From NCBI RefSeq assembly GCF_017163705.1, contig NZ_JAFIWB010000003.1, forward strand, positions 124,001 to 188,000: a DNA stretch of 64,000 nucleotides, written 5' to 3'. Source of the DNA: Xanthomonas bonasiae (GTDB lineage Bacteria > Pseudomonadota > Gammaproteobacteria > Xanthomonadales > Xanthomonadaceae). How positions within the stretch are numbered: the stretch's first letter is position 1; each line of letters opens with the position of its first letter. The notes beneath the pieces were generated by a model. That model was not told the origin of the DNA. It was given only the letters and a program-made list of their open reading frames with translations, and did not search any database. Below are positions 25,948 to 43,327 of this stretch, piece after piece. The position numbers and the translations under genes are program-made.

Positions 25948-26150
25948 GCGCGCGTCGCGAGCAGATCCGCGTCGTCGCGCGCGTGCTGCGCTACGGAACG
26001 ACCGCGGTTCGAAACTGAAGTACCCTCCCCCTCTACGCATCGCATGCTTTCCGGACGTGCGTCCGGCCGGCCCGCTGCGGCTGTGTCGCGAACGATGGGG
26101 ATCGTCGCGCGCTTCTGGCAAGCAAACGCGGAAGCAGTGGACACGTCTGT

Positions 26151-26165
26151 TGGCATATGGCTTGC
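26151..26165 (+). promoter_or_regulatory. Sigma-54 promoter of the glycan island
   Basis: TGGCAT-N5-TTGC in the 287-base gap after fleQ, 69 bases before the aminotransferase ATG at 26235. It uses the same TGGCAT variant as the element before rpoN2. It ties the coupled glycan genes to RpoN2/FleQ and shows that an upstream in-frame ATG at 26157, inside the promoter, is not the start. The rest of the gap holds nothing recognised. Confidence 0.75.
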
Positions 26166-26234
26166 TTTCAGAACAGGAACCCCGTCGCCACGATCCGCGC
26201 CGCGGATTCTCCACACGTACCCACGCAGGCCACC

Positions 26235-27416
26235 ATGCCCATTCCCGTCACCAGTCCGCTGCTGCCTCCCCTGGACGAGTTCGTGCCGTACCTGGAGAAG
26301 ATCTGGAGCAGCCGCATCCTGACCAATGGCGGCGACATGCATCGGGCGCTGGAAAAGGCGCTGGCGGAGTACCTGGGCGTCGGGCATCTGGCGTTGCTGA
26401 CCAACGGCACGCTGGCCCTGCTCACCGCGCTGCAGGCACTGCGCGTCACCGGCGAGGTGATCACCACGCCCTACTCGTTCGTGGCCACCGCGCACTCGCT
26501 GCTGTGGAAAGGGATCAAGCCGGTGTTCGTCGACATCGATCCGGTCACGCTGAACCTGGACCCGCAGAAGATCGAGGCCGCGATCACCCCGCAGACCACC
26601 GCGATCATGCCGGTGCACTGCTACGGCACGCCGTGCGACACCGCCGCGATCGAGCGCATCGCCGACACCTACAACCTCAAGGTCATCTACGACGCCGCGC
26701 ATGCCTTCGGGGTCAGGGACGACGGCGGCTCGATCCTGCGCCACGGCGACCTCAGCGTGCTCAGCTTCCACGCCACCAAGGTGTTCAACACCTTCGAGGG
26801 CGGCGCCATCGTCTGCCCCGACGAAAAGACCTACCAGCGCATCAGCCGGCTGAAGAACTTCGGCTTCGTCGACGAGACCACGGTGGTGGCCACCGGCATC
26901 AACGGCAAGATGAGCGAGGTGAACGCCGCCTTCGGCCTGCTGCAACTGCAGCACATCGATCGTGCGCTGGCGCAACGCCGCGAGATCGACGCCGACTACC
27001 GGCGACGCCTGGCGCAGGTCCCCGGCGTACGTTGCCTGGCGCCGCGTTCCCCGGACCTGGCCAACTACGCCTCGTTCCCGATCCTGATCGAGGACGACTT
27101 CCCGCTGACCCGCGACGGCCTGCATCAACTGATGCGCGAGCATGAGATCCTGGTGCGCCGCTACTTCTATCCGCTGATCAGCGATTTCCCGATGTACCGC
27201 GGCCTGCCTTCGGCCGCGCCGGCCGGCTTGCCGGTCGCCCGGCAGATGTCCGAACGGGTGCTGTGCCTGCCGATCTATCCCGGCCTGAGCGGCGGCGACG
27301 TGGAGACCATCGCCGACCTGATCGCCGGCGCCGGTACAGCCGCATCAACCGCTGCAAAAATCGGTCGCCCTGCCGCGACCCTCCCTTCCTCCGCCCACTC
27401 CGTGGAACAAGAATGA
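26235..27416 (+). CDS. DegT/DnrJ/EryC1 sugar aminotransferase
   Basis: A 393-residue PLP enzyme that transfers an amino group to a nucleotide-linked keto sugar. The PLP Lys is K182 (SFHATKVFN), with the supporting Asp at D153 (IYDAAHAFG). Length is typical. By analogy with VioA/FdtB-type enzymes it may make dTDP-4-amino-4,6-dideoxyglucose, but the substrate cannot be read from sequence. It opens an operon in which the next gene is an acyl carrier protein overlapping by 4 bases, so the amine is probably acylated afterwards. The start was chosen downstream of the sigma-54 element. Confidence 0.88.
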   Translation: MPIPVTSPLLPPLDEFVPYLEKIWSSRILTNGGDMHRALEKALAEYLGVGHLALLTNGTLALLTALQALRVTGEVITTPYSFVATAHSLLWKGIKPVFVDIDPVTLNLDPQKIEAAITPQTTAIMPVHCYGTPCDTAAIERIADTYNLKVIYDAAHAFGVRDDGGSILRHGDLSVLSFHATKVFNTFEGGAIVCPDEKTYQRISRLKNFGFVDETTVVATGINGKMSEVNAAFGLLQLQHIDRALAQRREIDADYRRRLAQVPGVRCLAPRSPDLANYASFPILIEDDFPLTRDGLHQLMREHEILVRRYFYPLISDFPMYRGLPSAAPAGLPVARQMSERVLCLPIYPGLSGGDVETIADLIAGAGTAASTAAKIGRPAATLPSSAHSVEQE

Positions 27417-27637
27417 GCCAAGCAACGTTTATCGAGAATTTCCTGTCGGCGACCGATTTCCAGACACCGGTCGAGGTGACGACGGACACCGTGCTGCGCG
27501 AGCTTCCCGAATGGGATTCGCTCGCCGCGCTCGGCGTGATCGTGATGTTCGACATGGAGTACGGCAAAACCATCACCGGCGAGCACCTGGCCGCCGCCGT
27601 CACCGTGGGCGACCTCTACCAGCTGACCGAGGCGTAG
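27413..27637 (+). CDS. Dedicated acyl carrier protein
   Basis: A 74-residue protein with the phosphopantetheine attachment motif EWDSLAALG (Ser36) and an acidic helical pattern typical of ACPs. It starts in an ATGA overlap with the aminotransferase and is followed one base later by a KAS III gene. A small ACP inside a sugar operon suggests that it carries the short acyl chain later placed on the sugar amine, rather than serving bulk fatty acid synthesis. Confidence 0.88.
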   Translation: MSQATFIENFLSATDFQTPVEVTTDTVLRELPEWDSLAALGVIVMFDMEYGKTITGEHLAAAVTVGDLYQLTEA

Positions 27638-27638
27638 C

Positions 27639-28679
27639 ATGCCGACTTCCACGCTGCACAACGTGCGCTTCGCCGGCATGGCGACCTGCGTGCCCAAGCG
27701 CGTCGTCTCCAACCTGACCGATTGCCGGCCGCAGATCCGTTCCGAGCGCGAGCGGCTGGTGCGCAACATCGGCATCGAGACCCGGCGCATGGCGCAGGAG
27801 TGGCAGTGTTTTTCCGACCTGGCGTTCGACGCGGCGCAGGTATTGATCGAACGGCTGCAATGGCAGCGCGAGGAAATCGATGCGCTGATCGTGGTCACCC
27901 AGTCGCCGGACTATCCGATCCCGGCGACCGCGATCATCCTGCAGGACCGGCTGGGCCTGTCGCATGCCACCGTCGCCTTCGATGTCAACCTGGGCTGCTC
28001 GGCCTATCCGTTCGGCATCAACCTGCTGGGCTCGATGATCGCCGCCGGCGGGGTCAAGAAGGGCCTGCTGCTGGTGGGCGACCGCAGCGCCAACCTGGAG
28101 GACCCGATCTTCTCCGATTCCGGCACCGCCACCGCGCTGGAATTCAGCGCCGACGCCGCGCCGATGTATTTCGACCTCAACAGCGACGGCAGCGGCTACA
28201 AGGCGATCATCCTGCCGGTCGGCGGACAGCGCGAGCCGGTCGGCGTTCAACACCTGATTCCCTATCGTGAGAACGAGAAGGATCGTTGGCACCAGGCGAT
28301 TGACCTACAGCTTGATGGGCCCGCGGTGCTGAGCTTCTCGACTCAGCGCGTGCCACCGGCAGTGGAAAAGTTGATCAATTACGCGGGCGTGGGCAAGGAC
28401 GACATCGACTACTTCGTGTTCCACCAGGCCAACCGGATGATCAACGAGACCATCCGCAAGAAGCTCAGCCTGCCGGTGGAGAAGGTGCCCTCGACCCTGC
28501 GCGACTTCGGCAACACCAGCGGCGCCTCGCTGCCGGTCACCATGACCGCACGCATCAACAAGGAACTGGAATCGGGCCGCAAGCGCGTGCTGCTGTGCGG
28601 CTTCGGCATCGGCCTGTCGTGGGGTACCTGCCTGATTGATATCGAGGGCGCGGTGTTTCCGGAGTTGATCGAGTCGTGA
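27639..28679 (+). CDS. 3-oxoacyl-ACP synthase III (FabH-like)
   Basis: A 346-residue thiolase-fold condensing enzyme with the KAS III triad Cys120 (DVNLGCSAYPF), His262 (FVFHQANRM) and Asn292 (GNTSGAS). It should condense an acyl-CoA starter with malonyl-ACP to a 3-ketoacyl-ACP, here probably on the ACP encoded just upstream. The following SDRs could reduce the product to a 3-hydroxyacyl group. In P. syringae, KAS III and reductase genes accompany the genes for flagellin viosamine, which carries a 3-hydroxybutyryl-type group. The stop overlaps the next gene (GTGA). Confidence 0.9.
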   Translation: MPTSTLHNVRFAGMATCVPKRVVSNLTDCRPQIRSERERLVRNIGIETRRMAQEWQCFSDLAFDAAQVLIERLQWQREEIDALIVVTQSPDYPIPATAIILQDRLGLSHATVAFDVNLGCSAYPFGINLLGSMIAAGGVKKGLLLVGDRSANLEDPIFSDSGTATALEFSADAAPMYFDLNSDGSGYKAIILPVGGQREPVGVQHLIPYRENEKDRWHQAIDLQLDGPAVLSFSTQRVPPAVEKLINYAGVGKDDIDYFVFHQANRMINETIRKKLSLPVEKVPSTLRDFGNTSGASLPVTMTARINKELESGRKRVLLCGFGIGLSWGTCLIDIEGAVFPELIES

Positions 28680-29449
28680 GTGCAGCCATCGATCCGAACG
28701 ACCCATTCTCGTTGCAGGGCAAACGCATTCTGGTCACCGGTGCATCGTCAGGCATCGGACGGCAGATCGCGCTGAGCTGCGCGCAGATCGGCGCACAGTT
28801 GGTCATCAGCGGCCGCGACGAAGGCCGCCTGGCCGAGACCTTCGCCACACTTGAAGGCACAGGGCATGAGCAGGTGATCGCCAACCTGGACAAGCAGGAG
28901 GACATCGACCATCTCGTGGCTTCGGTCGGTCTCCTGGATGGCGTCGCGCACGCGGCCGGAATCGCCCGGCTGGCGCCGTTCCGGCTAATGAACCGAGCGC
29001 ATCTGGACGAAACCTTCGCCAGCAATGTCTATGCGCCACTGCTGCTGACGCGCGGCCTGCTGGCGAAGAAACGCATCAACGCCAACGGCTCGATCCTATT
29101 CATCTCCGCCGTGGGCTCGCACGTCGGTCCTGTCGCCACTGCCGCCTACTCTGCCAGCAAGGCAGCCCTGCTCGGCGCAATGCGTACGCTGGCGCTGGAA
29201 GTGGCCAAGCAGGGTATCCGCGCCAACTGCATCGCGCCCGGTTATGTGCGCACCCCAATGCTCGACGGGCTCAACCAAAGTGGCGGCAACATCGACGAGC
29301 ACGCGAAGCTGACTCCGCTTGGACTGGGCGAACCGGAAGACGTGGCTTATGCGGCAGTGTTCTACCTGTCCGACGCCAGTCGCTGGGTCACCCGCAACTA
29401 CTTCGTCGTTGACGGTGGTCTGACCGTGCCGATGGACATCTACGCATGA
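28676..29449 (+). CDS. SDR-family oxidoreductase 1 (FabG-like)
   Basis: A 257-residue classical short-chain dehydrogenase: TGASSGIG nucleotide-binding loop (21-28), Ser144, and the catalytic Y158-xxx-K162 in YSASK. It starts at a GTG in a 4-base overlap with the KAS III gene. A likely role is reduction of the 3-ketoacyl-ACP, but acting on a keto sugar is also possible. It is a close paralogue of the next gene, including near-identical TGASSGIG, LSDASRWVT and C-terminal DGG segments, so the pair probably arose by duplication. Confidence 0.88.
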   Translation: MSAAIDPNDPFSLQGKRILVTGASSGIGRQIALSCAQIGAQLVISGRDEGRLAETFATLEGTGHEQVIANLDKQEDIDHLVASVGLLDGVAHAAGIARLAPFRLMNRAHLDETFASNVYAPLLLTRGLLAKKRINANGSILFISAVGSHVGPVATAAYSASKAALLGAMRTLALEVAKQGIRANCIAPGYVRTPMLDGLNQSGGNIDEHAKLTPLGLGEPEDVAYAAVFYLSDASRWVTRNYFVVDGGLTVPMDIYA

Positions 29450-30198
29450 GCAATCCGACTCGCAAAGCCTTTTCCCTAGAGGGCAAGACCATCCTGGTCA
29501 CCGGCGCGTCGTCCGGCATTGGCCAGGAAATCGCACTCACCTGCGCACGGCGCGGCGCGCGACTGATCGTCAGCGGTCGCGATGCCGCGCGTCTCCAGAC
29601 CACCCATGCGCAGCTGGCAGGAGACGGGCATGTGCAGGTGCAGGCCGACCTGACTGTTGCGGAGGACCGGGAGCGCCTGGTGCAAGCCAGCCAGCGCATC
29701 GACGGCGTGGTGCATTGCTTCGGCGGACAGATGCTGTCACCGATCCGCCAGCTGAAAGAAGAGCTGATGACGCGCATATACGAGGTTCATTTCCTGGCCC
29801 CGGTCATGCTGACCCAGCGTCTGCTGCAGGCCAATGCCATCACCGCGCAAGGCTCCATCGTGTTCATGCTATCCACCTCGGCGCACATTGGCACACGCGG
29901 CGTGGGGCCATACTCGGCAATGAAGTCCGGCCTGCTGGGCATTATCCGCTGCTTGGCGCTGGAACAGGCGAGGCACCGCATGAGAGTCAACGGGATTTCG
30001 CCATCGGTCGTGCCCACCCCGCGCCTTTGGGGCGAGGACAACGAGCATAACGAACCACTGAAGCAGCAACGCGCGCGCCATCCATTGGGTCTGGGTACAC
30101 CGCAAGATGTCGCCAACGCTGCGGTCTATTTGCTGTCCGACGCCAGCCGCTGGGTCACCGGCACCAGCCTGGTCATGGACGGCGGGGCGGTGCTGTGA
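29446..30198 (+). CDS. SDR-family oxidoreductase 2 (FabG-like paralogue)
   Basis: A 250-residue SDR with TGASSGIG (19-26) and Y156-xxx-K160 (YSAMK). It differs from its neighbour in the segment after the fourth strand, where the usual NNAG-like motif reads CFGGQ against HAAGI in the first copy, and around the substrate loop. The two copies have therefore probably diverged in substrate, for instance one on the ACP-bound ketone and one on a sugar. It overlaps both neighbours and is translationally coupled. Confidence 0.85.
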   Translation: MSNPTRKAFSLEGKTILVTGASSGIGQEIALTCARRGARLIVSGRDAARLQTTHAQLAGDGHVQVQADLTVAEDRERLVQASQRIDGVVHCFGGQMLSPIRQLKEELMTRIYEVHFLAPVMLTQRLLQANAITAQGSIVFMLSTSAHIGTRGVGPYSAMKSGLLGIIRCLALEQARHRMRVNGISPSVVPTPRLWGEDNEHNEPLKQQRARHPLGLGTPQDVANAAVYLLSDASRWVTGTSLVMDGGAVL

Positions 30199-30839
30199 TG
30201 GAACGGGCACTCATTATCGGCGCCGGCGGCTGGGGCCGCGAAGTCCTGGAGCAAATGCATGACGACGTCGGGCATGGCAAGGACTGGCTGATCGGCGGGT
30301 TCCTGGACAGCCGCGCCGATATCCTCGACCGCTATGACGTCGACACGCCGATCATTGGCGATCCGATGAGTTACCTGCCACAGCCTGACGATGTATTCGT
30401 CTGTGCGATGGGCAACCCCTACGACCGCCACCGCTACGCTCTGCCGATCCTCGAGAAAGGCGGGCGGTTCATTCCCATCCTTACCGACGTCCGCCTGGGT
30501 CGGCGGGTGCACTTCGGCCAGGGCTGCTTCTTTGGCCTGCTGGTCCAGTCCGGGCCGGACGTGCGCATCGGCGACTTCGTCACCATCCACGCCCAGAGCA
30601 TGCTCGGGCACGACGTAAGCATCGGCGACTACGTGCACGTTGGCGCAATGGCCTTCATGGGCGGCGGCGTCCAGATTGGCAACTTCGTCACCGTACATCC
30701 GCGTGCCACCCTGATGCCAGGCGTCAAGGTTGGTGACGGCGCAGTCATCGGGGCCGGCGCGGTGGTCATGAAAGACGTACCAGCCGGCGCCAGTGTGTTC
30801 GGCAACCCTGCCCGCATCGTGTTCCAGAAAGACATTTGA
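30198..30839 (+). CDS. NeuD/PglD-family sugar acyltransferase
   Basis: A 213-residue two-part enzyme. The N-terminal Rossmann-like domain begins ALIIGAGGWGREVLEQ and may bind the nucleotide sugar. The C-terminal left-handed beta-helix has hexapeptide repeats (VRIGDFVTIHAQ, VSIGDYVHVGAMAF, VQIGNFVTVHPRA). Such enzymes N- or O-acylate amino sugars; a natural donor here is the acyl-ACP made by the upstream genes. The ATG at 30198 overlaps the previous stop (TGATG); an in-frame GTG at 30195 is an alternative. Confidence 0.87.
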   Translation: MERALIIGAGGWGREVLEQMHDDVGHGKDWLIGGFLDSRADILDRYDVDTPIIGDPMSYLPQPDDVFVCAMGNPYDRHRYALPILEKGGRFIPILTDVRLGRRVHFGQGCFFGLLVQSGPDVRIGDFVTIHAQSMLGHDVSIGDYVHVGAMAFMGGGVQIGNFVTVHPRATLMPGVKVGDGAVIGAGAVVMKDVPAGASVFGNPARIVFQKDI

Positions 30840-31999
30840 CAAGGCAGTTATTCATGCGCTCGCGAATGCACCCCAGGTACTACCTGTCGCCGGAGATTTT
30901 TTCCCGCGAGCAGGAAAAGATCTTTCGCAAGGTTTGGCTTTTCGCCGGTCTGAAGACCCTGCTGACGGAGAACAACAGCTTCATCACCCGCAAGATCGCC
31001 GGCATCCCGGTCGTCATCCAGAATTTCAACGGCCAGTTGCGCGCATTCGAGAACGTGTGTCTGCACCGCAGCGCGCCGCTCCAGACCGCGCCCACCGGAC
31101 GACGTCCGCTGGTATGCCCCTACCACGCTTGGAGCTACGACCAGGACGGCGCGATCAAGAACATCCCCGAATGTCGTGCCCTGTATCGCATAAGCCAGGC
31201 CGAACAGCAGAAACTCCGGCTGCGGGAGTTCGCCCTGCACGCGATCGGCAACGTGCTGTTCGTCAACCTGGACAGTGACCCGATGCCGATCGAGGAGCAG
31301 TTCCCCGCGCACTTCATCTCCATGTTGGAAAGCAGCTCCAACCTGTACGACGGCGAGGTGATGGTGACCACCTGGCACTGCAAGTTCAACTGGAAGCTGG
31401 CGTACGAGAACCTTCGCGACGCCAATCACCCGCGCTTTGTCCATCCCAAGAGCCTCGCCCGGGAATTCGACTTCATCCCCTACGTCGATACTGAACTGGC
31501 GGCCGAAGGCCTCCGTCCCCTGGCCGATACCAGCCCCGCCGGGCTACGCGCGGAGATGCGCCGCTTCAGCTCGGCCGGCGCTGACGCGCCGATCACCGAG
31601 CCCAAGCCTCTGCCATTCCATGACATGGTCGAGCGCTGGGGGAAACAGGACGCCTATTTCAACTGGCTGGCGTTTCCCAACATGCATATCGCCTGCCCCA
31701 ACGGCGGCTATTCCTTCACTCTGGAACATCACATCCCCGTGGCCCCGGACAGGACCGATCTGGAAATCTATTGGTTCACCACGCGCAAGAAGAAGCCTTA
31801 TGCCTTTTCCAGCTGGAACCTGCTCTCGCACATGCATGGCAGCCGGCTGGTGACAGGCGAGGACGTGGAGATCATGGAACATGTGCAATCAGCGCTGCAC
31901 ATGGACGCACCGATGCCGACCCAGGGGGTCTACGAGTTCACCAACCGCTTGGTGGAGCGCTGGTACGCAACACTGATGGAGACAGAACATGGCCTCTAG
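30836..31999 (+). CDS. Rieske non-heme iron oxygenase
   Basis: A 387-residue alpha subunit of an aromatic-ring-hydroxylase-type oxygenase. The Rieske cluster ligands are C75-x-H77 (NVCLHRSAP) and C94-xx-H97 (VCPYHAWSY). The mononuclear iron site is D195, H198 and H203 (NLRDANHPRFVH), with a C-terminal acidic ligand in GEDVEIMEHVQ. It looks most like the choline-monooxygenase/demethylase branch. It starts at a TTG overlapping the previous stop; the ATG at 30854 is an alternative. No ferredoxin or reductase gene is nearby, so electrons must come from elsewhere. Its place inside the sugar operon suggests hydroxylation or oxidative demethylation of the glycan or its acyl group. Confidence 0.88.
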   Translation: MTRQLFMRSRMHPRYYLSPEIFSREQEKIFRKVWLFAGLKTLLTENNSFITRKIAGIPVVIQNFNGQLRAFENVCLHRSAPLQTAPTGRRPLVCPYHAWSYDQDGAIKNIPECRALYRISQAEQQKLRLREFALHAIGNVLFVNLDSDPMPIEEQFPAHFISMLESSSNLYDGEVMVTTWHCKFNWKLAYENLRDANHPRFVHPKSLAREFDFIPYVDTELAAEGLRPLADTSPAGLRAEMRRFSSAGADAPITEPKPLPFHDMVERWGKQDAYFNWLAFPNMHIACPNGGYSFTLEHHIPVAPDRTDLEIYWFTTRKKKPYAFSSWNLLSHMHGSRLVTGEDVEIMEHVQSALHMDAPMPTQGVYEFTNRLVERWYATLMETEHGL

Positions 32000-32612
32000 A
32001 TGCGTCATCGGAACCGGCATCTGCCTGAATCAGGTTTTCAATGCCTGGAGGCAGGCCGAGCCGCAGGCCGAGGTGCGCAAGGTCGAGGTTTCGCTACGCG
32101 CCGACTACGGCTTCGACCCGGACGCACTGGATGGCCTTGACCCGGCTGCGGACAGGCTGTTCATCGCCTACGACGAACGCTTCGGCAACTTCAAGCGCAT
32201 GGAGCTGATGCAACTGGCGATGGAGCGCGGCTTTAGCCTGGAGCCTTTCGTCAGCACGTCGGCCGTGGTTGCTGCCGATGCGGTGATCGGCCGCAACTGC
32301 TTCATCGGCGACGGCGTGGTGGTCGGCGCGGGCAGCCGTATCGACTACAACACCGTGCTGCATAGCGGGGTCAAGATCGGCGCTGGCGCGCATCTGCGCC
32401 CCTCATGTTGGTGCGACATCGGCGTAAGCATCGGCCACGGCGCGGAAATCGGCGCGCACGCCATCTTGCGCATGGGAGCGGTGGTCGGCCCTGGCGTCCG
32501 GATCGGCCGCCACTGCGAACTGGGCTGGCCACGCCTGTATGACCGGGACGTGCCCAGCCGCACGGTGTACGACACCCGCTATGACGAGCCCATCCATGTC
32601 TATGGCCTTTGA
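31989..32612 (+). CDS. Hexapeptide-repeat acyltransferase-like protein
   Basis: A 207-residue protein with a short N-terminal alpha/beta part and a left-handed beta-helix (about 95-190) built of hexapeptide repeats (AVIGRNCFIGDGVVVGAGSR, VKIGAGAHLRPS, VSIGHGAEIGAHAI, VRIGRHCELG). It overlaps the Rieske gene by 11 bases. It may add a second acyl group or act as an isomerase; the family does not fix the substrate. It is the last clearly intact gene of the coupled block. Confidence 0.82.
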   Translation: MASRCVIGTGICLNQVFNAWRQAEPQAEVRKVEVSLRADYGFDPDALDGLDPAADRLFIAYDERFGNFKRMELMQLAMERGFSLEPFVSTSAVVAADAVIGRNCFIGDGVVVGAGSRIDYNTVLHSGVKIGAGAHLRPSCWCDIGVSIGHGAEIGAHAILRMGAVVGPGVRIGRHCELGWPRLYDRDVPSRTVYDTRYDEPIHVYGL

Positions 32613-33102
32613 CTTCAAGGGAGCCGCACGAAAAGCCCACGCGCTGAAAAGCGGAGAGAAAGATCGCGCCCTCGACCAGAACCTGATCGGCACCGACCAC
32701 TTGTGCCGATCTGGTCTGGCCGCACGCGCACTTCGATGCCGACCTGCGTCTGATGGGCAACGCGTTTATCGGCCCAGCTGCGGGCGTCCGGCATCCACAT
32801 CGGTCCAGGCAGCTGGCTGGGGCAGCAGGTGATCGCCGAACAGGATGTGCGTGCAGGTGCCCGCGCGCCCTGCATGCTGGCATCCATCTCGGGCGCGGCA
32901 TGGAGATCGACCAAGGCAGCACCAGGGCAGCGGCAGCATCGCGCGAAGCAAGGCAACAATCGGACGACACTGCGCATGGCTGTTGCCGGGGGTGCTGCCC
33001 GACACGCCACCGAATCGTTGTGGATGCAACGCGCTGATGCCGCGCGGCATTCATATCCCGGGCTCAGCGCCAGATGAACATTCTGACCCGCCATTACAGT
33101 GA
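32596..33102 (+). pseudogene. Decayed hexapeptide acyltransferase gene
   Basis: An ATG at 32596 or 32602 opens a frame (AFDFKGAARKAHALKSGEKD) that loses its sense near 32695. The next plausible piece (DLVWPHAHFDADLRLMGNAF) is in another frame. From about 32785 a third frame gives GIHIGPGSWLGQQVIAEQD, and from about 32900 yet another gives ARSKATIGRHCAWLL and ends in PRGIHIPGSAPDE. Read across the shifts, it resembles a maltose/galactoside-type acetyltransferase. At least three frame changes make it non-functional. A 26-codon open frame at 33074 overlaps its end and is probably meaningless. Confidence 0.7.
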
Positions 33103-33144
33103 ACAGGATCTGCTCGACGGCGAAGCCACCAAGGAACCATCACC

Positions 33145-34419
33145 ATGGCCTTAACCACCGGCTCCATCGCACGAGCCCGCATCAAATATCCGGGACTGGA
33201 TCCGGCCAGGACCAAGCTGATCGGCTGGGGCGCGGGGCAGTTCTTCCGCGATTTCTATCCTAGCGTCAGCGGTCAATTGGACATGCAGTACACGATCTGT
33301 CCACGCAGCGAGAACCAGGGAACCACCGTGCACGGCGTCGCGGTGCGCCCGCCAGCCGCGCTGGAAGAAGAGTCGGTCGACGATGTGCTGATCGTGATCT
33401 TTTCCAACCACTACCCCGAAGTGATGAACCAGATCCACAGGTTGCATGGCAACTGGCGCACCGTGCGGGCCGTGGACTGCAACGACGCCGACGTCGCCCT
33501 GCTTGAAGAACTGCAGGACGTCTCGAACCTGCTGCCGGACCTGCGCCTGTCGCGCAGCCTGCAGGTTCCGAAGACCGGCATCTTCGTGCAGGGACTGGCA
33601 TTCGACTTCACCCCCCTGTTACTGGCCTGGAACCGCCTGCACTACCCGACCGCCTACCAGTGCATGGTGACCTGGGAGCATCAATCCGGCGAACTGCTGG
33701 ACCGCTGCCGTCCGTGGCTGGACGAATTGATCCTCGTACCCCAACCGGACAACCTCGGCCTGCACTATCGCAACGCGGTGCTGCGCTCGGCACGTCTCGG
33801 AGCCGAGCATTTGGCGCAAAAGGGCATCGCCTTCGCGGTGCGCTGCCGCAGCGACAACATCCTGCACGGGTCGATCCACCAGGCCATCGACGCGTACTTC
33901 CGCGGCACGCGCAACCGCGGAAAGATCGCGGTCTCACTGGCGGCGTCGTGGCAGCACATGCCGTTCCATTTCTCTGAAAAGGCGATGCTGGCCAGGACCG
34001 AGGACATGCTGGCGCTGTGGTCGATGGCGGAAGACCCGCGGCCGCCAAGCTTCGCCGACGACGAACTGTCGCCGATGCTGGAGCTGGCGCCGCATCGTCA
34101 CTTCCAGGAACTGAGCCAGTACACCTTCGAGTCCTCGCTGTGGCGGGACTACGCGCGGCGCCTGGGTTTCGCCACGGAAACGCTGGTTGACGGATACCGG
34201 TTCGCCCAATCGCGCCTGCTTGCGCTGGAACCGCATCTGAGCTGGTCCTCGCTGAAATTCGTGCCGTTGTTCAACGTGCAGCGCGATACCGGCTACTCGT
34301 TCTCGATGGAAAGCTGGAACCGCTTGATCAGCGAGGGCGATGCGGCACTGGAACGGGCGGATGCGGTCAGCAGACTGCAGATCAATTCGACCGACTACTG
34401 GCAAGGCCGCGCCGGTTGA
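33145..34419 (+). CDS. WavE-like glycan synthesis protein with N-terminal Rossmann-like module
   Basis: A 424-residue protein. Residues about 155-400 resemble the WavE lipopolysaccharide-synthesis family (AYQCMVTWEHQSGELLD, RCRPWLDELILVPQPDN, AFAVRCRSDNIL), possibly a glycosyltransferase. The first 120 residues (TKLIGWGAGQFFRDFYPSVS, then VDDVLIVIFSNHYPEVMNQI) form a separate Rossmann-like module that also begins the two long FkbM proteins downstream. No signal peptide or membrane span is seen. It follows the acyltransferase pseudogene and precedes a cytidylyltransferase. Confidence 0.65.
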   Translation: MALTTGSIARARIKYPGLDPARTKLIGWGAGQFFRDFYPSVSGQLDMQYTICPRSENQGTTVHGVAVRPPAALEEESVDDVLIVIFSNHYPEVMNQIHRLHGNWRTVRAVDCNDADVALLEELQDVSNLLPDLRLSRSLQVPKTGIFVQGLAFDFTPLLLAWNRLHYPTAYQCMVTWEHQSGELLDRCRPWLDELILVPQPDNLGLHYRNAVLRSARLGAEHLAQKGIAFAVRCRSDNILHGSIHQAIDAYFRGTRNRGKIAVSLAASWQHMPFHFSEKAMLARTEDMLALWSMAEDPRPPSFADDELSPMLELAPHRHFQELSQYTFESSLWRDYARRLGFATETLVDGYRFAQSRLLALEPHLSWSSLKFVPLFNVQRDTGYSFSMESWNRLISEGDAALERADAVSRLQINSTDYWQGRAG

Positions 34420-34458: not shown

Positions 34459-35214
34459 ATGAACTACGCCATCGTCATTCCCGCGCGCCGCGATTCCTCG
34501 CGCCTGCCTGGCAAGCCGCTGCTCGAGCTCGGCGGCATTCCCATGATCGTGCGGACCTATCGCCAATGCGCGCAGGCCGCGCCAGCCGAGCGGATCGTGG
34601 TCGCCACCGACTGTGACATGATCCGCACCGCTTGCGAGCTGGCCGGGATCCGCACGCTGATGACCTCCAGCGATTGCCTGACCGGCACCGACCGCGTTGC
34701 CGAGGTCGCGCGGCGGGTGGAGGCAGACACCTACATCAACGTGCAGGGCGACGACCCGCTGTTCAATCCCGACGACCTGCGGTTGCTGATCGACGCGGCG
34801 GCGACGGCGCCGGATGCGGTCATCAACGGCTATTGCCCAATCGCCAGCATTGAGGACTTCCGCAATCCCAGCATTCCCAAGGTGGCGGTCCGCCCCGACG
34901 GTCGTTTGCTGTACATGTCGCGCGCCTCGATTCCGATCACCAAACAAGGCGAGTTCCACCGCGCCTGGCGTCAGGTCTGCGCCTACGCCTTTCCCAGGCA
35001 GGCGCTGCAGGCGTTCGCCGCCGTCACCCGCAAGACCGCATTGGAAGAGATCGAGGACATCGAGATCCTGCGCTTCCTGGAGCTGGGTTTCGAGGTCAGG
35101 ATGGTGCAGATGAGCGACCAATCGATCGCGGTGGATACGCCGGCCGACGTGCTGCGCGTGGAGCAGGCGCTGCGCGCCCGGCAGCACAGCGACGTGCCGG
35201 AAGCGCAATCATGA
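34459..35214 (+). CDS. KdsB-like CMP-sugar synthase
   Basis: A 251-residue nucleotidyltransferase of the CMP-Kdo synthetase family: IPARRDSSRLPGKPL for CTP binding, TGTDRVAEVA, the NVQGDDP motif (usually NVQGDEP) and IAVDTPADVLRVE near the end. It would activate a 2-keto acidic sugar with CMP. Because lipid A synthesis needs a housekeeping kdsB, usually elsewhere, this copy in a flagellar glycan island is likely a specialised paralogue. An AAGGAAG ribosome site precedes it, and it overlaps the next gene by 4 bases. Confidence 0.85.
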   Translation: MNYAIVIPARRDSSRLPGKPLLELGGIPMIVRTYRQCAQAAPAERIVVATDCDMIRTACELAGIRTLMTSSDCLTGTDRVAEVARRVEADTYINVQGDDPLFNPDDLRLLIDAAATAPDAVINGYCPIASIEDFRNPSIPKVAVRPDGRLLYMSRASIPITKQGEFHRAWRQVCAYAFPRQALQAFAAVTRKTALEEIEDIEILRFLELGFEVRMVQMSDQSIAVDTPADVLRVEQALRARQHSDVPEAQS

Positions 35215-35984
35215 GCGCTACGTCCGACCATCCGACCAACCCGCACTCTCCCGCCTGCGGTTCTGCAGACGCCAGAAACGCCGAGCACGCCCTCGCCTAT
35301 TCGCCACGCGCGTTCTTCGATCGTCTGCTCGGCACGCAAACGCCCGTCGTGCTTGACGTCGGTGCGCATCGTGGCGAATCGATCCGTTTCTTCAAAGCGA
35401 TCTATCCGCAGTGCCACCTGTATTCTTTCGAGCCAGATCCGCATAACTTCGCCGAGCTGGAAAAAGTATCCACGCAGTTCGGCACTGTCGCGGTGCAGGT
35501 GGCGCTGGGCGAGAAGAAAGAGCAGTGCCGCTACTACCGGCAAGGCATCTCCCATCTGGGAGGCTTGCTGCCGATCGACCCGCAATCGCGCGATTCGCTG
35601 GGCTACGCCCGAAACGCGGCCAACGAGGCGATCGAGGTCCGCAAGACCTCGCTTGATCTGGCCTGCGCCGAACTGGGCATCGACCACGTGCATATCCTCA
35701 AGATCGACGTGCAAGGCTACGAAAGCCAGGTACTGCAAGGCTGCACGCGGATGCTGCGGCACACCGATTGCGCGGTGATCGAGATCGGACTTTACGACTT
35801 CTACGGCAAGACCAGCAGTTTCGTCGAGGTGGTCAACCTGATGCACGCTGCGGGCTTCTCGCTGTGGGACATCGCCAAACTGTCGAAGAACCCCAAGAGC
35901 CTGCGCACCGACTGGATCGAGGTCGTGTACCGCCGCGACAATGCAGTAACGCAGGAGCCGGGCGAGTTTCTTTCAAAATCATAG
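35211..35984 (+). CDS. FkbM-family methyltransferase 1
   Basis: A 257-residue SAM-dependent methyltransferase: DVGAHRGES for SAM binding, SFEPDPHNF, and the FkbM motif LKIDVQGYESQVLQG. FkbM enzymes methylate sugar hydroxyls or related groups, so it could O-methylate the flagellin sugar. It overlaps the cytidylyltransferase (ATGA) and shares its base composition, so it belongs to the older part of the island. Confidence 0.87.
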   Translation: MSATSDHPTNPHSPACGSADARNAEHALAYSPRAFFDRLLGTQTPVVLDVGAHRGESIRFFKAIYPQCHLYSFEPDPHNFAELEKVSTQFGTVAVQVALGEKKEQCRYYRQGISHLGGLLPIDPQSRDSLGYARNAANEAIEVRKTSLDLACAELGIDHVHILKIDVQGYESQVLQGCTRMLRHTDCAVIEIGLYDFYGKTSSFVEVVNLMHAAGFSLWDIAKLSKNPKSLRTDWIEVVYRRDNAVTQEPGEFLSKS

Positions 35985-35987
35985 AAC

Positions 35988-37223
35988 ATGACTCAGGGGC
36001 CAATCATGCAAAATAGTATCCAAACCAAAATAAACATCGACCCCCAGTCAATGGAAGAGAATTTTCTGCTGGCCGCCCAGGGCCTGGCTGACGACCCGAT
36101 GTTCGGCGTTCGCGAGGACGTGCGCCGTCTCATTGCCAAGCATGGCGACGACACCAAGATGATCATCCTCGGAACTAGAGGCTTTGGCGGGTACTTGCTG
36201 GACCTGAAAGAGGATCTGCCTTGCAATGTAATCGCCTCCGTGGACGACACCCAGTGTCACTCCGGCGCCCTGTATCACGAAACACCCATCATCTCTACGA
36301 AAAAATTCGTAGAACTGGCTAGATCCGGAGACATCATCGCCTTCAACAGCTGTGGAAGTGATGGCCCCAAGCGTTTTTTTGATCAAGTATGCCGGCAACA
36401 CAGCATTCCCCATCTCAATTTTGAACAGACCATTCGCGCCTTCGGCTTGCAGGGGCGGGTTGATTACAGGGTGGACGATTGGGGACAGGAAATCGTGCGC
36501 AACGTTGCCAGATACCAGCGTCTGGCAAAACGTTTTTTCGATGACTACTCCGCAAAAACCCTGTTTTCCGTCCTGAACTTTCATCTAACCTGCGATCCGG
36601 AGTACCACCACGAATTTGAACGCCCCTATAACACCCTGTACTTCCGCTCCGGCCTGCTGCGATTCAGCGATTCGGAAAAGATGGTGGATTGCGGCGCCTC
36701 CATCGGCGAATCCCTCAGCGGCCTTATTGGCGTCACCAAAGGCCAATTCTCGCGCTCATGGATGATCGAACCTGATCGCATCAATATAGACACACTGAAT
36801 AATCTGTTGCGCCGCTACGAAGGCACGCCTCTAGGATCCAAAATCAGCCTACATGGCTGCGGCGTGGGCGAGACAGAAACCAGGGTTCCATTCAAGCACC
36901 AAGGTGGGCACGGCGGCTTCATCAGCTCCTCGGATGACGATTGCGAGCCCACAGACATGATCGACGTGCGTCCTATCGACAGCATCGTCGACGACGCGCC
37001 CACGTTCATCAAGATGGACATCGAAGGGTCGGAACTGGGGGCCATGAGGGGTGCGGGAAAGACGATCAAGCTATGCAAGCCCAAGATGGCAATCTCTGCC
37101 TATCACAGGTCCACCGACTTGCTGGATCTCAGCGATTTGGCGCTTTCTTTGAACCCGGATTACAAGATGGGCCTGCGCCATCACACGCACTATCGTTGGG
37201 ATACATGCCTGTATTTCTATTGA
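35988..37223 (+). CDS. FkbM-family methyltransferase 2 with N-terminal Rossmann-like module
   Basis: A 411-residue protein. The C-terminal FkbM domain (about 225-405) has VDCGASIGES, EPDRINI and IKMDIEGSELGAMRG. The N-terminal part (about 45-140: KMIILGTRGFGGYLLDLKED, then IASVDDTQCHSGAL) is a nucleotide-sugar-binding-like module shared with the WavE-like protein and with FkbM 3. The ATG at 35988 or 36006 may start it. Base composition is lower in GC than in the first part of the island, suggesting later acquisition. Confidence 0.83.
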   Translation: MTQGPIMQNSIQTKINIDPQSMEENFLLAAQGLADDPMFGVREDVRRLIAKHGDDTKMIILGTRGFGGYLLDLKEDLPCNVIASVDDTQCHSGALYHETPIISTKKFVELARSGDIIAFNSCGSDGPKRFFDQVCRQHSIPHLNFEQTIRAFGLQGRVDYRVDDWGQEIVRNVARYQRLAKRFFDDYSAKTLFSVLNFHLTCDPEYHHEFERPYNTLYFRSGLLRFSDSEKMVDCGASIGESLSGLIGVTKGQFSRSWMIEPDRINIDTLNNLLRRYEGTPLGSKISLHGCGVGETETRVPFKHQGGHGGFISSSDDDCEPTDMIDVRPIDSIVDDAPTFIKMDIEGSELGAMRGAGKTIKLCKPKMAISAYHRSTDLLDLSDLALSLNPDYKMGLRHHTHYRWDTCLYFY

Positions 37224-39309: not shown

Positions 39310-39396
39310 AGCATTTTGGCTCAAAAATTGCCTCAATGGGCGACGCTGCCGCCTTTCCGCCGACGTCCACCACATCCCTCCCCCACACGGTTCATC

Positions 39397-39598: not shown

Positions 39599-39687
39599 GA
39601 GGGTCAATCACGCCATTGGTCGACAGCGGCCTCGACTGGGCACGGCATGCTCGGCCAAACCCAACGAAGTCCGGCCGGGCCACGGCC

Positions 39688-39702
39688 CGGCACGCATGTT
39701 GC
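39688..39702 (+). promoter_or_regulatory. Sigma-54 promoter of the large glycosyltransferase
   Basis: CGGCAC-N5-TTGC with correct GG/GC spacing, 104 bases before the ATG at 39806. It gives the glycosyltransferase its own RpoN2-dependent promoter, separate from the upstream cassette. Confidence 0.65.
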
Positions 39703-39805
39703 ATCCGGTAGCGGATCGGCGCCGTCATCCCCGTCTCCGAATGGTGCCGAAACCACTGACAATGCAGTGGATGTACTTTCCCACCCCGAACACGGTCAAT
39801 CCTGC

Positions 39806-42800
39806 ATGAGTTCCCCCGCCCTGGTCAGCATCGTCATGCCGGCCTACAAGTTCCGCTATTTCGAGCGGACGCTGGACAGCGTGCTGGGCCAGACCTATAC
39901 GGCGCTGGAACTGGTGATCTGCGACGACAACCCCGATGGCAGCATCGCTGCTGCGGTGGAGCGCAAGCGCGCCGACGCGCGCTTCCCGATCCGCTACCAG
40001 CGCAACCCCATCCGCCTGGGCGAACTCGGCAGCAAGATCAAGGCCATCGCCCTGGCGCAGGGCGAATACGTCAAGTTCCTGCACGACGACGATTTACTGG
40101 AACCTGAGTGCATCGCCGCCCTGGTGCAGGCCATGCAAGCCGCGGCCGGGGTGGTGCTGGCCTCCTCGCGCCGGCAGCGCATCGACGGCGACGACGCGCC
40201 GCTGCCGGACATCCACGCCACCAGCTTCCCGTTCGCCGGCGACGTGCTGCTCGACGGCCCGGAGCTGCTGTCCTTCCTCGCCGACCACACCATCAACTTC
40301 ATCGGCGAGCCCAGCTGCGTGCTGTGCCGGCGCCGGGATCTGCTGGAGATCGGCGACCAGCTGATGATGCTGGACGGCAAGGTGATCCACTGGGTCGGCG
40401 ACCTGGCGCTGTACGCCAAGCTCCTGCATCGCGGCAACCTCGCCCTGCTGGCCAGGCCACTGACCCGCTTCCGGGTGACGCGGGACCAATACAGCCAGGC
40501 CGGCCGCGACCAGCCGGGGATCGGCGACCAGGGCCACGACGATTTCCGCCGCGGCGTGCGCGCCATGGGCTGGTACCGCGGCGACGGCGACGTGCGCCTG
40601 GTCCATGTGACCCCGCTGGACGGAGGCCGCGCCGAACCGGTCGATCTGCTGCAGGCGATCCAGGCCGCGTATGCGCGCGGCCGCGCCCAGCTGGCGCTGC
40701 GTGACTGGCAGGCGCAGCGCCAGCTGCCGCCGGCCAAGCGCGCCCTGTTCGACGCGCGCCTGGCGGAACTGGGCGGCGGTGCGCGGCTGGCGGTAATGCT
40801 GGACGCGCGCAACGCGGATGCGGCCACGCTGCAAGCCAGCCTGCACAGCCTGCTGCTCGACGGCGCCGCCTTCGCGACGCTGAGCGTGGCCGTGCTCGGC
40901 GCCGCGACGGCCACGCCGTGGCCGGATCCGCGGGTCCGGCATCTGCCGCTGGCGTCCGCCGACGAGGCCGCCGACCGCAACGCCGCGCTGGCCGAACTCG
41001 ACCACTCTGACTGGTTCCTGTGCGCCCGCGCAGGCACCGTTTTCTGCGCGGGCGGCCTGCTGCGCTTGGTGCTGGAGCTGGCGCAGCAGCCGCACTGCAG
41101 CGCGCTGTATGCCGACGAATGGCTGGCGCTGGACGCCCAGACGCTGGCTCCGGTGCTGCGCCCGGATCCGGATCTGGACCTGCTGCTGGGCAATCCGCTG
41201 GCGACCGCCGGGCACTGGGTGTTCCGCCGCGCCCTGGTGCAGGAGCTGGGCGGGTTCGATCCCGATCACGACGGCGCGCTGGAACTGGAGCTGATCCTGC
41301 GCCTGTTCCAGCGCGATGCCGGCGCCAGCCTGGGACATCTGCCCGAGCCGCTGCTGATCGCGGCGCCGGCCGACGCCGCCGCGGGCGCCGAGGCGCGCCA
41401 GCGCGCCGTCGCCAGCCATCTGCGGGCACGCGGCTATGCCGACGCCAGGATCGACGCGCTGCCTGGAGGGCTGCATCGCATCGACTATGGCCATGCGCAG
41501 CAGGCGCCGGTCTCGATCGTGACCATCGCCCAGGACAATCTGCCGGCCCTGCAGCGCCTGGTGGTCGGTCTGCTCGAGACCACCGCCTACCCGGCCTACG
41601 AACTGCTGCTGGTCGACAACGCCAGCGACGCGCCGGCAGTCGGCGCATGGCTGCAGGCGGTGGCCGAACTGGGCAACGGCCGCATCCGCGTGTTCGCATT
41701 GGAGCAGCGCGTGGCCCAGGCCGAGGCGCGCAACCTGGCCGCGACCCAGGCGCATGGCGACTACCTGCTGTTCCTGGACGCCGACAGCGCCGTGGTCCAG
41801 GGCCGCTGGCTGCACGAACTGATGAACCATGCGCAGCGCCCGGAGGTCGGCATCGTCGGCGCCAAGGGCGTGTCCGCGGACGCCACCATCACCCACGCGG
41901 GTCTGCTGCCCGGGCTGTTGCCCGGCGCCGGCCACGCCTTCGCCGGCGAGCCGATGGCGCACGCCGGCTACATGGGCCGGCTGCAGGTGGCGCACCGCTA
42001 CAGCGCCGTGTCCGAGCGCTGCATGCTGGTGCGGCGCGACCTGTTCGAACGCTTGTCCGGCTTCGATGCGGGCGGGTTCGGCGACGGCGGCGCCGACGTG
42101 GACCTGTGCCTGCGCGCCGCCGCGCTGGGCGAATGGACGCTCTGGACACCGGAAGCGCTGCTGCTGCAGCCCCCCGCGCCGCCACGGCCGCAAAGCGCGG
42201 ACGATGCGCTGCTGCAACGCTGGCTGCCGGTCATGGCGCACGATCCAGCCTACTCGCCGAGCCTGGGCCTGGAGCAGTCGGGCGGCTTCAAGCTCGGCGA
42301 ATCCGAGTTCTCCTGGCAGCCGCTGGCGTGGAAGCCGCTGCCGCGGATCCTGGCGCATCCCGGCGACGCGTTCGGCAGCGGCCACTATCGGGTGATCCAG
42401 CCGTTCCAGGCACTGGCCGAGGCCGGGCAGATCGACGGCGTCTACTACGCGCGCCTGCTCGACCCGGTGGAGATGGAGCGCATCGCCCCCGATGCGGTGG
42501 TGGTGCAACGCCGGGTCGGCGACGTCGAACTGGCCAAGATGGAGCGCATGCGCCGCTTCTCCACCGCGTTCAAGGTCTACGAACTCGACGACTACCTGCC
42601 CAACCTGCCGTTGAAGAGCGTGCATCGCGAGCAGATGCCCAAGGACGTGCTGCGCTCGCTGCGCCGGGCCGCGGCGCTGGCGGACCGGGTGGTGGTGTCG
42701 ACCCCGACCCTGGCCGAGGCGCTCGCCGGCCTGCATGCCGACATCCGCGTGGTCCACAACCGGCTGGATCCGCGCATGTGGGGCGATCTGCCCGCGCCGA

Positions 42801-43327
42801 CCAGGACCAGCGCCGGCGCCAAACCGCGGGTCGGCTGGGCCGGCGGCGCCAGCCACACCGGCGACCTGGAACTGATCGCCGACGTGGTGCAGGCGCTGGC
42901 CGGCGAGGTGCACTGGGTGTTCATGGGCATGTGCCCGGAGCGGCTGCGTCCGCATGTGGCCGAAGTGCACCCGGGCGTGGACTTCGAACGCTATCCGCAG
43001 GCCCTGGCCGCGCTGCGCCTGGACCTGGCGCTGGCGCCGCTGGAAGACAACCTGTTCAACCGCTGCAAGAGCAATCTGCGCCTGCTCGAATACGGCGCCT
43101 GCGGCTACCCGGTGGTGGCCAGCGACCTGCCGCCCTACCAGCACGGGTTGCCGGCGACCCTGGTCAAGAACCGCTTCCGCGACTGGGTCAATGCGATCCG
43201 CATGCACCTGGCCGATGCCCCCGCCCGGGCTGCGGCCGGCGACGCGCTGCACGCGGCGGTGCGCCGCGACTGGATGCTGGAAGGCGCCAACCTGCAGGCC
43301 TGGCGCGCGGCCTGGCTGCCGGACTGA
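39806..43327 (+). CDS. Large multidomain glycosyltransferase, probable flagellin glycosyltransferase
   Basis: A 1173-residue cytoplasmic protein. Residues 1-240 are a GT2 domain (VSIVMPAYKFRYFERTLDSV, CDDNPDG, HDDDLLEPEC). Residues about 320-560 look like a second, weaker GT2-type fold. Residues 565-790 are another GT2 domain (VSIVTIAQDNLPALQRL, LFLDADSAVVQG). Residues about 840-1173 are a GT1/GT4-like domain (AFGSGHYRVIQPFQALAE, then YGACGYPVVASDLPPYQHG). Large multidomain transferases of this kind (Fgt) glycosylate flagellin in P. syringae and Xanthomonas. The sigma-54 promoter and the place between fleQ and fliE support that role. It could also build the glycan chain. The ATG at 39806 is favoured; the frame is open upstream. 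Confidence 0.85.
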   Translation: MSSPALVSIVMPAYKFRYFERTLDSVLGQTYTALELVICDDNPDGSIAAAVERKRADARFPIRYQRNPIRLGELGSKIKAIALAQGEYVKFLHDDDLLEPECIAALVQAMQAAAGVVLASSRRQRIDGDDAPLPDIHATSFPFAGDVLLDGPELLSFLADHTINFIGEPSCVLCRRRDLLEIGDQLMMLDGKVIHWVGDLALYAKLLHRGNLALLARPLTRFRVTRDQYSQAGRDQPGIGDQGHDDFRRGVRAMGWYRGDGDVRLVHVTPLDGGRAEPVDLLQAIQAAYARGRAQLALRDWQAQRQLPPAKRALFDARLAELGGGARLAVMLDARNADAATLQASLHSLLLDGAAFATLSVAVLGAATATPWPDPRVRHLPLASADEAADRNAALAELDHSDWFLCARAGTVFCAGGLLRLVLELAQQPHCSALYADEWLALDAQTLAPVLRPDPDLDLLLGNPLATAGHWVFRRALVQELGGFDPDHDGALELELILRLFQRDAGASLGHLPEPLLIAAPADAAAGAEARQRAVASHLRARGYADARIDALPGGLHRIDYGHAQQAPVSIVTIAQDNLPALQRLVVGLLETTAYPAYELLLVDNASDAPAVGAWLQAVAELGNGRIRVFALEQRVAQAEARNLAATQAHGDYLLFLDADSAVVQGRWLHELMNHAQRPEVGIVGAKGVSADATITHAGLLPGLLPGAGHAFAGEPMAHAGYMGRLQVAHRYSAVSERCMLVRRDLFERLSGFDAGGFGDGGADVDLCLRAAALGEWTLWTPEALLLQPPAPPRPQSADDALLQRWLPVMAHDPAYSPSLGLEQSGGFKLGESEFSWQPLAWKPLPRILAHPGDAFGSGHYRVIQPFQALAEAGQIDGVYYARLLDPVEMERIAPDAVVVQRRVGDVELAKMERMRRFSTAFKVYELDDYLPNLPLKSVHREQMPKDVLRSLRRAAALADRVVVSTPTLAEALAGLHADIRVVHNRLDPRMWGDLPAPTRTSAGAKPRVGWAGGASHTGDLELIADVVQALAGEVHWVFMGMCPERLRPHVAEVHPGVDFERYPQALAALRLDLALAPLEDNLFNRCKSNLRLLEYGACGYPVVASDLPPYQHGLPATLVKNRFRDWVNAIRMHLADAPARAAAGDALHAAVRRDWMLEGANLQAWRAAWLPD

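What the first reader, a model, noticed from the sequence alone, without database searches (positions are those of the whole stretch)
26151..32612. Sigma-54-driven, overlapping eight-gene cassette that looks like an ACP-based factory for an acylated amino sugar
An aminotransferase, ACP, KAS III, two SDRs, a NeuD-like acyltransferase, a Rieske oxygenase and another hexapeptide acyltransferase are joined mostly by 4-base overlaps behind one sigma-54 element. P. syringae flagellin carries a modified viosamine with a 3-hydroxybutyryl-type group, made with KAS/reductase genes. The same logic would fit here, with the acyl chain built on a private ACP. That the target is flagellin is inferred from location and promoter.
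Basis: partly seen in the sequence, partly recalled or inferred. Interest (0 to 1): 0.7.

Follow-up and report, generated by a model that had tools for sequence, protein, structure and literature searches.

The report
Swappable flagellin-sugar acylation operon
In a Xanthomonas flagellar gene cluster, eight genes look like a small assembly line that makes an amino sugar with a custom acyl group, most likely to decorate flagellin; the kind is already known from Pseudomonas and Xanthomonas, but here the tail half of the line looks to have been swapped between species like a cassette.

Summary
The eight genes are really there. Seven keep their expected active-site residues across related loci; the eighth, the last hexapeptide protein, has no conserved histidine. 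A sigma-54-like site 84 bp upstream is conserved across Xanthomonas. The ACP/KAS III/amino-sugar reading holds. The flagellin target rests on more than location: in P. aeruginosa PA7 the same genes lie between flgL and fliC, matching the published PA103/PAK island orfA-orfI (PMC4020848, passages). The mutant-tested P. syringae viosamine island uses the same enzyme kinds (PMC3927599). For X. oryzae a review reports RpoN2/FleQ-controlled flagellin-glycosylation genes gigX1-10 (PMC8657755; original not held). So this is a new member of a known kind. Not met in the papers I searched is its mosaicism in Xanthomonas: a conserved head (aminotransferase-ACP-KAS III) with exchangeable tails that move as two modules, [SDR-SDR-NeuD] and [Rieske-hexapeptide]. 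In this genome the tail looks swapped, leaving a truncated remnant of another hexapeptide gene at about 32.7-33.1 kb. The Rieske chemistry is unknown. Interest 0.35.

The parts
26150..26166 (+). sigma-54-type (-24/-12) promoter-like element TTGGCATATGGCTTGCT
   Evidence: GG-N10-GC, 10/12 consensus; at -82 to -97 in 38 of 40 distinct Xanthomonas loci; containing 18-mer unique in genome
26235..27416 (+). VioA/DesI-type DegT aminotransferase (proposed to make the 4-amino sugar)
   Evidence: PF01041 5.1e-101; TIGR04427 292 bits, below its cut-off of 650; PLP Lys and Asp in 46 of 46; 74% identical to PA7
27413..27637 (+). private acyl carrier protein, 74 aa
   Evidence: PP-binding sub-threshold, PA7 orthologue over threshold; Ser36 in 46 of 46; alignment A1
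27639..28679 (+). KAS III (FabH/VioS-like) condensing enzyme
   Evidence: PF08541; nearest solved chain 4efi 4.4e-58; Cys120-His262-Asn292 in 46 of 46
28676..29449 (+). SDR 1 (FabG/VioR-like ketoreductase)
   Evidence: PF13561 7.5e-49; Tyr/Lys in 46 of 46
29446..30198 (+). SDR 2
   Evidence: PF13561 2.6e-45; Tyr 43 of 43, Lys 42 of 43
30198..30839 (+). NeuD/PglD/VioB-type N-acyltransferase
   Evidence: TIGR03570 7.3e-47; nearest solved chain VioB 7txp 2.2e-23; His138, aligned with a His of VioB, in 46 of 46
30854..31999 (+). Rieske non-heme iron oxygenase, alpha-subunit type
   Evidence: PF00355 and PF00848; CxH/CxxH, D189-H192-H197 and D337 in 46 of 46
31989..32612 (+). left-handed beta-helix (hexapeptide) protein of uncertain activity
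   Evidence: PF00132 1.1e-14; no column with His in 30 or more of 45 loci
32707..33117 (+). truncated remnant of a type II hexapeptide gene (later half only): recombination scar
   Evidence: 72-75% DNA identity over 285-418 bp to that gene (in L030 running just past it) in 13 clade-1 loci; + strand ORFs here are 82-97 aa; stops in all three + frames
39806..43327 (+). multi-domain glycosyltransferase (OrfN/VioT-like by size and place), likely user of the product
   Evidence: GT2 domains and weak GT1 hits; 55% identical over 1183 aa to the GT beside fliC in PA7; start inferred
39688..39703 (+). second sigma-54-like site, upstream of the glycosyltransferase
   Evidence: 11/12 consensus; sites scoring 10 or more upstream in 23 of 44 relatives' rows, no shuffle control

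Best explanation
The cassette is the Xanthomonas version of the P. aeruginosa a-type / P. syringae viosamine flagellin-glycosylation island. The aminotransferase makes dTDP-4-amino-4,6-dideoxyglucose (viosamine) from dTDP-4-keto-6-deoxyglucose (RmlB is encoded elsewhere in the genome). KAS III condenses a short acyl-CoA with malonyl on the private ACP; SDR 1 and/or 2 reduce the keto group(s), giving a 3-hydroxyacyl-ACP such as 3-hydroxybutyryl; the NeuD-like enzyme moves that acyl to the 4-amino group; the Rieske oxygenase with the last hexapeptide protein adds a further oxidative modification (site unknown); the large OrfN/VioT-like transferase puts the finished sugar on the flagellin glycan. 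RpoN2 and FleQ switch it on with the flagellum. The tail is exchanged between lineages in two modules, so the acyl 'R group' can change without changing the head. Shown here: gene content, order, active-site conservation, promoter-site conservation, presence of RmlB, synteny with flagellar genes, mosaicism and a remnant. Inferred: every enzymatic step, the sugar, the acyl chain, the flagellin target, direct RpoN2/FleQ control, and the history behind the mosaic.
For: The order AT-ACP-KAS-SDR(1-2)-NeuD-Rieske-hexapeptide is shared by the Xanthomonas loci and, with an FkbM gene between NeuD and Rieske, by PA7, where it runs flgL ... GT-fliC, matching the published PA103/PAK orfA-orfI table. P. 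syringae vioA, vioB, vioT and vioR mutants lack the modified viosamine, and the authors infer that the transferase needs the reduced acyl (PMC3927599). The same paper cites viosamine as a component of PAK flagellin glycan. gigX1-10 regulation by RpoN2/FleQ (PMC8657755). RmlB model 510 bits, cut-off 365, in the genome. SDR1, SDR2 and NeuD pairwise identities co-vary at 0.84-0.88, fitting an acyl chain matched to its transferase. F. psychrophilum: private ACP plus KAS plus KR plus PglD homologue proposed for a 3,5-dihydroxyhexanoyl amide, with R-group genes varying among strains (PMC6519341, passages).
Against: All NCBIfam aminotransferase equivalogs are below cut-off, so the sugar is not fixed. 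The Rieske gene has no reductase among the eight genes and no assigned role. The last gene lacks a conserved His. Two same-genus genomes have fleQ and fliF and keep the aminotransferase and GT at this locus but show no ACP/KAS tail, so acylation is not essential to the locus. Three Oxalicibacterium loci carry ACP, KAS, SDR, NeuD and Rieske with only a distant (27-30%) aminotransferase and no flagellar hit in the fetched flanks; Delftia and Comamonas loci lie beside fliC but lack a close aminotransferase. The NeuD protein is 1.2 bits under its NCBIfam cut-off. AT-Rieske identities still correlate weakly (0.24, 0 of 500 permutations), so head and tail are not wholly independent.
Confidence: 0.8

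Rival explanations
1. Same pathway, but the chain is longer or doubly reduced (for example 3,5-dihydroxyhexanoyl), with the two SDRs reducing two keto groups after two condensations.
For: Two SDRs with conserved Tyr/Lys co-inherited with NeuD; precedent of 3,5-dihydroxyhexanoyl with a private ACP in F. psychrophilum (PMC6519341).
Against: Only one KAS here, against two KAS genes but one reductase in F. psychrophilum; only one SDR was found in PA7 (L063), L056 and L061.
Confidence: 0.25
2. The product goes to a surface polysaccharide (LPS or exopolysaccharide) rather than flagellin.
For: ACP/KAS-type acyl sugars are proposed for O-antigens; Oxalicibacterium loci show no flagellar genes in the fetched flanks.
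Against: Position between fleQ and fliF in Xanthomonas; next to flgK/flgL or fliC in 5 of 8 named non-Xanthomonas loci (5 of 10 with the two unnamed distant loci L039 and L040); conserved sigma-54 site; flagellin-glycosylation role of gigX1-10 stated in PMC8657755.
Confidence: 0.08
3. The Rieske-hexapeptide pair does not belong to the acyl pathway but makes a separate sugar or modification and is only co-transcribed.
For: The pair co-varies with itself (0.79) more than with SDR/NeuD (0.49-0.60), and three loci join it to the other acyl module. L040 has no Rieske hit and L068 only a partial one about 5 kb further on.
Against: A Rieske hit accompanies the acyl genes in every Xanthomonas locus, and in PA7, L061, L064-L066, L069, L074 and the distant L039.
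Confidence: 0.3

Closest known systems
P. aeruginosa a-type flagellin glycosylation island (PA103/PAK orfA onwards; PA7 here)
   Same: Same gene order aminotransferase, ACP, KAS III, reductase, transferase, 2Fe-2S protein, acetyltransferase, and a large GT; KAS III 84%, ACP 80%, AT 74%, GT 55% identical to PA7. A review says the a-type islands are polymorphic (PMC3958885, passages), so variability as such is known there.
   Different: PA7 has one SDR and an FkbM gene before the Rieske gene and lies between flgL and fliC; the Xanthomonas locus lies between fleQ and fliF and the window has two SDRs.
GigX, flagellin-glycosylation island of X. oryzae
   Same: Same genus; RpoN2/FleQ-regulated flagellin-glycosylation genes (review PMC8657755, passages and section 6).
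   Different: Original paper not held and no X. oryzae record among the named loci; gene-by-gene identity not tested.
P. syringae viosamine island (vioA/B/T/S/R/M, acp)
   Same: Same enzyme kinds: VioA, ACP, KAS III, reductase, VioB acyltransferase, VioT (PMC3927599).
   Different: No Rieske gene in the seven-gene list; the paper gives 12-52% identity to the PAK proteins; it lies between a glutamine synthase gene and a histidine kinase gene. Not compared with the window by sequence here.
F. psychrophilum O-polysaccharide R-group genes wfpC-G
   Same: Private ACP, KAS, KR and PglD homologue; R-group genes differ among strains (PMC6519341, passages).
   Different: O-antigen, two KAS genes, UDP sugar. 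Not compared by sequence here.

Membership tests
PAK/vio-type flagellin glycosylation island | VioA-like aminotransferase, ACP, KAS III, SDR and NeuD/VioB in one operon-like row | tested here: met
   co-transcription not tested
PAK/vio-type flagellin glycosylation island | partner ~1,170-aa OrfN/VioT-like glycosyltransferase in the island | tested here: met
   55% over 1183 aa to PA7 GT; GT2 domains; OrfN and VioT themselves not compared
PAK/vio-type flagellin glycosylation island | location in the flagellar gene cluster (PAK type) | tested here: met
   flgK, flgL, fliC, fliS, sigma-54 factor and sigma-54 activator upstream, fliF and fliG downstream
PAK/vio-type flagellin glycosylation island | deletion alters flagellin glycan | not testable with these tools
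   reported for P. syringae vio genes (PMC3927599), not for this locus
GigX of Xanthomonas | RpoN2/FleQ-dependent expression | tested here: inconclusive
   conserved sigma-54-like site; rpoN and a sigma-54 activator upstream; no expression data
GigX of Xanthomonas | orthology to gigX1-10 | not tested
   primary paper not held
NeuD/PglD/VioB-like acyltransferase (last gene, 31989-32612) | conserved catalytic histidine (role recalled) | tested here: not met
   no column with His in 30 or more of 45 loci
Rieske oxygenase alpha subunit | CxH...CxxH cluster plus 2-His-1-carboxylate and bridging Asp (roles recalled) | tested here: met
   46 of 46

The most novel reading that the evidence does not exclude
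The locus is a recombinational R-group switch: a conserved loading head (aminotransferase-ACP-KAS III) and a conserved capping transferase hold interchangeable tail modules, one setting the acyl chain (SDR-SDR-NeuD) and one setting an oxidative finish (Rieske-hexapeptide), so that flagellin surface chemistry is reshuffled between species in combinatorial fashion, with a Rieske oxygenase doing a new kind of glycan tailoring.
Probability: 0.35. Interest if true: 0.6.

Novelty: new member of a known kind. Interest (0 to 1): 0.35.

Why it matters
It suggests that the flagellin acyl-sugar pathway worked out in P. syringae, and its P. aeruginosa a-type relative, is common in Xanthomonas, and that its variable part moves as modules. 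That predicts which enzymes decide the acyl group, and makes testable whether flagellin surface chemistry changes by cassette exchange. The conserved Rieske oxygenase is an unassigned step in a known island.

Tried and rejected
Rejected: that the cassette is a window-specific novelty. KAS III is found in 18 of 20 same-genus genomes, own included, and in 33 of 297 family genomes (own, 15 others of the genus, 14 of genus g237, and 3 at 40-41% identity). It is rare further out: in a class sample 3 of 274 pass 1e-60, of which one is the own genome and two are at 38-40% identity. Rejected: that the stretch after 32612 is plain intergenic DNA. A plasmid source found no support: all 355 plasmid records matched KAS III at under 60%, the best listed at 40.7%. 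Physical adjacency alone does not explain module co-variation, since the KAS III-SDR1 neighbours give 0.27 and SDR2-NeuD 0.84. Structure prediction of the ACP was asked six times and never ran (queue full), so no fold search was made. The GigX paper is not held. Counts in the genus Pseudomonas could not be obtained. Rows dropped before the module counts: L045, L048, L053 (duplicates of L025, L028, L036; confirmed identical over 7 kb), L039, L040, L068, L069 (distant or incomplete), L072 (KAS III truncated). 46 loci remained, 40 of them Xanthomonas including the window; SDR2 is missing in L056, L061 and L063, the last gene in L060 (contig end). The permutations do not remove shared ancestry.
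Full report
Observation. The window lies in a 5.38-Mb genome of 89 contigs. By its relatives it is a Xanthomonas: the genus-mates G005, G012 and G013 hold the same sequence as named Xanthomonas records. The species is not identified. The eight genes are present in order and on one strand; coordinates are in the parts list. Upstream lie flgK, flgL, fliC, fliS, a sigma-54 factor gene (TIGR02395, 360 bits, cut-off 277) and a sigma-54-dependent activator (no equivalog over its cut-off; called fleQ after the published X. campestris order), downstream fliF and fliG. FliD was matched only below cut-off. A sigma-54-like element lies 84 bp upstream of the first ATG and is conserved at -82 to -97 in 38 of 40 distinct Xanthomonas loci. 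Of the two others, L070 has it at score 9 and L071's best site is at -280. Of four other loci, PA7 has a score-10 site at -89 and L039, L061 and L064 score 4, 7 and 9 elsewhere. In the 200-base steps around it the DNA is only 25-54% identical between this clade and the campestris clade, so the conservation is meaningful. A second sigma-54-like site precedes the glycosyltransferase; similar sites occur in 23 of 44 relatives' rows, duplicates included, without a shuffle control.

What it is. The head genes are close to P. aeruginosa PA7: AT 74%, ACP 80%, KAS III 84%. In PA7 the island follows flgK/flgL and ends with a 1171-aa glycosyltransferase before fliC. The published PA103/PAK table lists the same order: aminotransferase, acyl carrier protein, 3-oxoacyl-ACP, 3-oxoacyl-ACP reductase, transferase, 2Fe-2S ferredoxin, acetyltransferase, methyltransferase, O-antigen protein, fliC (PMC4020848, passages). 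P. syringae has vioA, acp, vioS, vioR, vioB, vioM, vioT; mutants in vioA, vioB, vioT and vioR lack modified viosamine, and the authors infer that VioT needs the reduced acyl (PMC3927599, passages and sections 5 and 7). For X. oryzae a review states that RpoN2/FleQ control gigX1-10, flagellin glycosylation genes (PMC8657755, passages and section 6); the original paper is not held. For X. campestris a figure legend places vioA next to fleQ (PMC7280030, passages), the position of the aminotransferase here.

Active sites. In 46 loci (three of them with a distant aminotransferase; 43 loci for SDR2, 45 for the last gene) the PLP lysine, ACP serine, KAS III Cys-His-Asn, SDR1 Tyr/Lys, NeuD histidine, and the Rieske cluster and iron ligands are conserved without exception. 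SDR1's aligned Ser is S in 31, A in 14 and T in 1; SDR2 has one exception each at Lys and Ser. The last hexapeptide protein has no column with His in 30 or more loci, so calling it an acyltransferase is not supported. Residue roles are recalled from general knowledge of the families.

Mosaicism. Against the nearest genus-mate (L022; fleQ 99%, fliF 99%) the window is mostly 93-99% identical from 26.1 to 28.1 kb (87% in one 200-base step), 84-90% to 28.7 kb, then 39-64% through the tail to 32.7 kb. Against X. floridensis and X. codiaei (L046, L047; fleQ 82-83%) the tail is 84-98%. One genus-mate, L023, shares the window's tail at 87-98%, so the same exchange, or its source, is not unique to this genome. 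Identity to X. dyei (L041) drops at about 30.8 kb (NeuD/Rieske border), and to X. pisi (L044) at about 31.9 kb (Rieske/hexapeptide border). Pairwise protein identities among 40 Xanthomonas loci (39 for SDR2 and the last gene) co-vary within [SDR1, SDR2, NeuD] (0.84-0.88) and [Rieske, hexapeptide] (0.79), less between these (0.49-0.60), and weakly with the aminotransferase (0.09-0.25). In permutations 0 of 500 reached the value for the strong pairs, but also 0 of 500 for the weak KAS III-SDR1 (0.27) and AT-Rieske (0.24); 21 of 500 for AT-SDR1. Clustering the 46 loci at 62% identity gives two main tails: 17 loci of one type; 12 plus 7 of the other, differing in NeuD group; three (L050, L055, L070) joining one acyl module to the other oxidation module; and seven others (L033 and L059; L056 and L061; L060, cut by a contig end; L063; L074). 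L050 holds two Rieske-hexapeptide pairs and L070 a 62-aa second NeuD piece, as expected of incomplete exchanges.

Scar. Directly behind the window's hexapeptide gene, up to 32710, the DNA matches what follows that gene in L023, L046, L047 and L059 (76-83%). From 32707 to 32987-33117 it matches, at 72-75%, the later half (and, in L030, just beyond) of the other-type hexapeptide gene in 13 clade-1 loci and in L050 (73%), and at 68-70% that of four campestris-clade loci (L051, L054, L056, L067). No ORF of that gene's length is there (+ strand ORFs 82-97 aa); each + frame has at least one stop, one frame being open to 33035. The simplest reading is that a resident tail was replaced and the end of its last gene remains. 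The downstream genes (33145-34419, cytidylyltransferase, first FkbM gene) have 71-82% relatives in up to seven campestris-clade loci, while none of the 17 clade-1 stretches fetched shows the first two at 1e-6.

Alternatives at the same site. Two genus-mates (G015, G017) keep the aminotransferase (77%) and glycosyltransferase (61%) but have another gene between them, in G017 a CDP-glycerol glycerophosphotransferase-like one (PF04464; the G015 one looks alike by reading) and no hit to the ACP-KAS tail at 1e-4. Outside Xanthomonas, 5 of 8 named loci are next to flgK/flgL or fliC (L061, L063, L064, L068, L069); the three Oxalicibacterium loci show no flagellar hit, nor do the unnamed distant L039 and L040.

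Mechanism and limits. The best reading is given in Best explanation. Only anatomy, conservation and synteny are shown. The acyl chain, the sugar and the Rieske step are inferred. Searches on Xanthomonas flagellin glycosylation (listings and abstract starts) showed no account of this module exchange, but the key GigX paper was not readable, so absence from print is not claimed. Polymorphic a-type islands in P. aeruginosa (PMC3958885, passages), versatile islands in Enterobacteriaceae (PMC4875605, passages) and variable R-group genes in F. psychrophilum (PMC6519341, passages) are in print.

Noticed in passing
window 39123-39809: Fragment with a DUF772 transposase domain running into a weak glycosyltransferase match; 39382-39579 repeats 39894-40091 at 82%, so an older GT 5' part may remain beside an IS remnant.
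   Followed up: partly
window 35211-38894: Three FkbM-type methyltransferase genes in a stretch whose GC falls to 44% at 38-39 kb against 67% for the window, probably imported.
   Followed up: partly
window 33145-34419: 424-aa protein with no Pfam family at 0.001, shared with seven campestris-clade loci at 74-78%.
   Followed up: no
L061: Pseudomonas sp. 8AS KAS III is 88% identical to the window's, closer than that of the same-genus genome L038 (71%), suggesting transfer between orders.
   Followed up: no
L039: Distant genome of the same class with aminotransferase (68%), KAS III, SDR, Rieske, NeuD and a second KAS III match on one 8-kb contig; no ACP hit.
   Followed up: no
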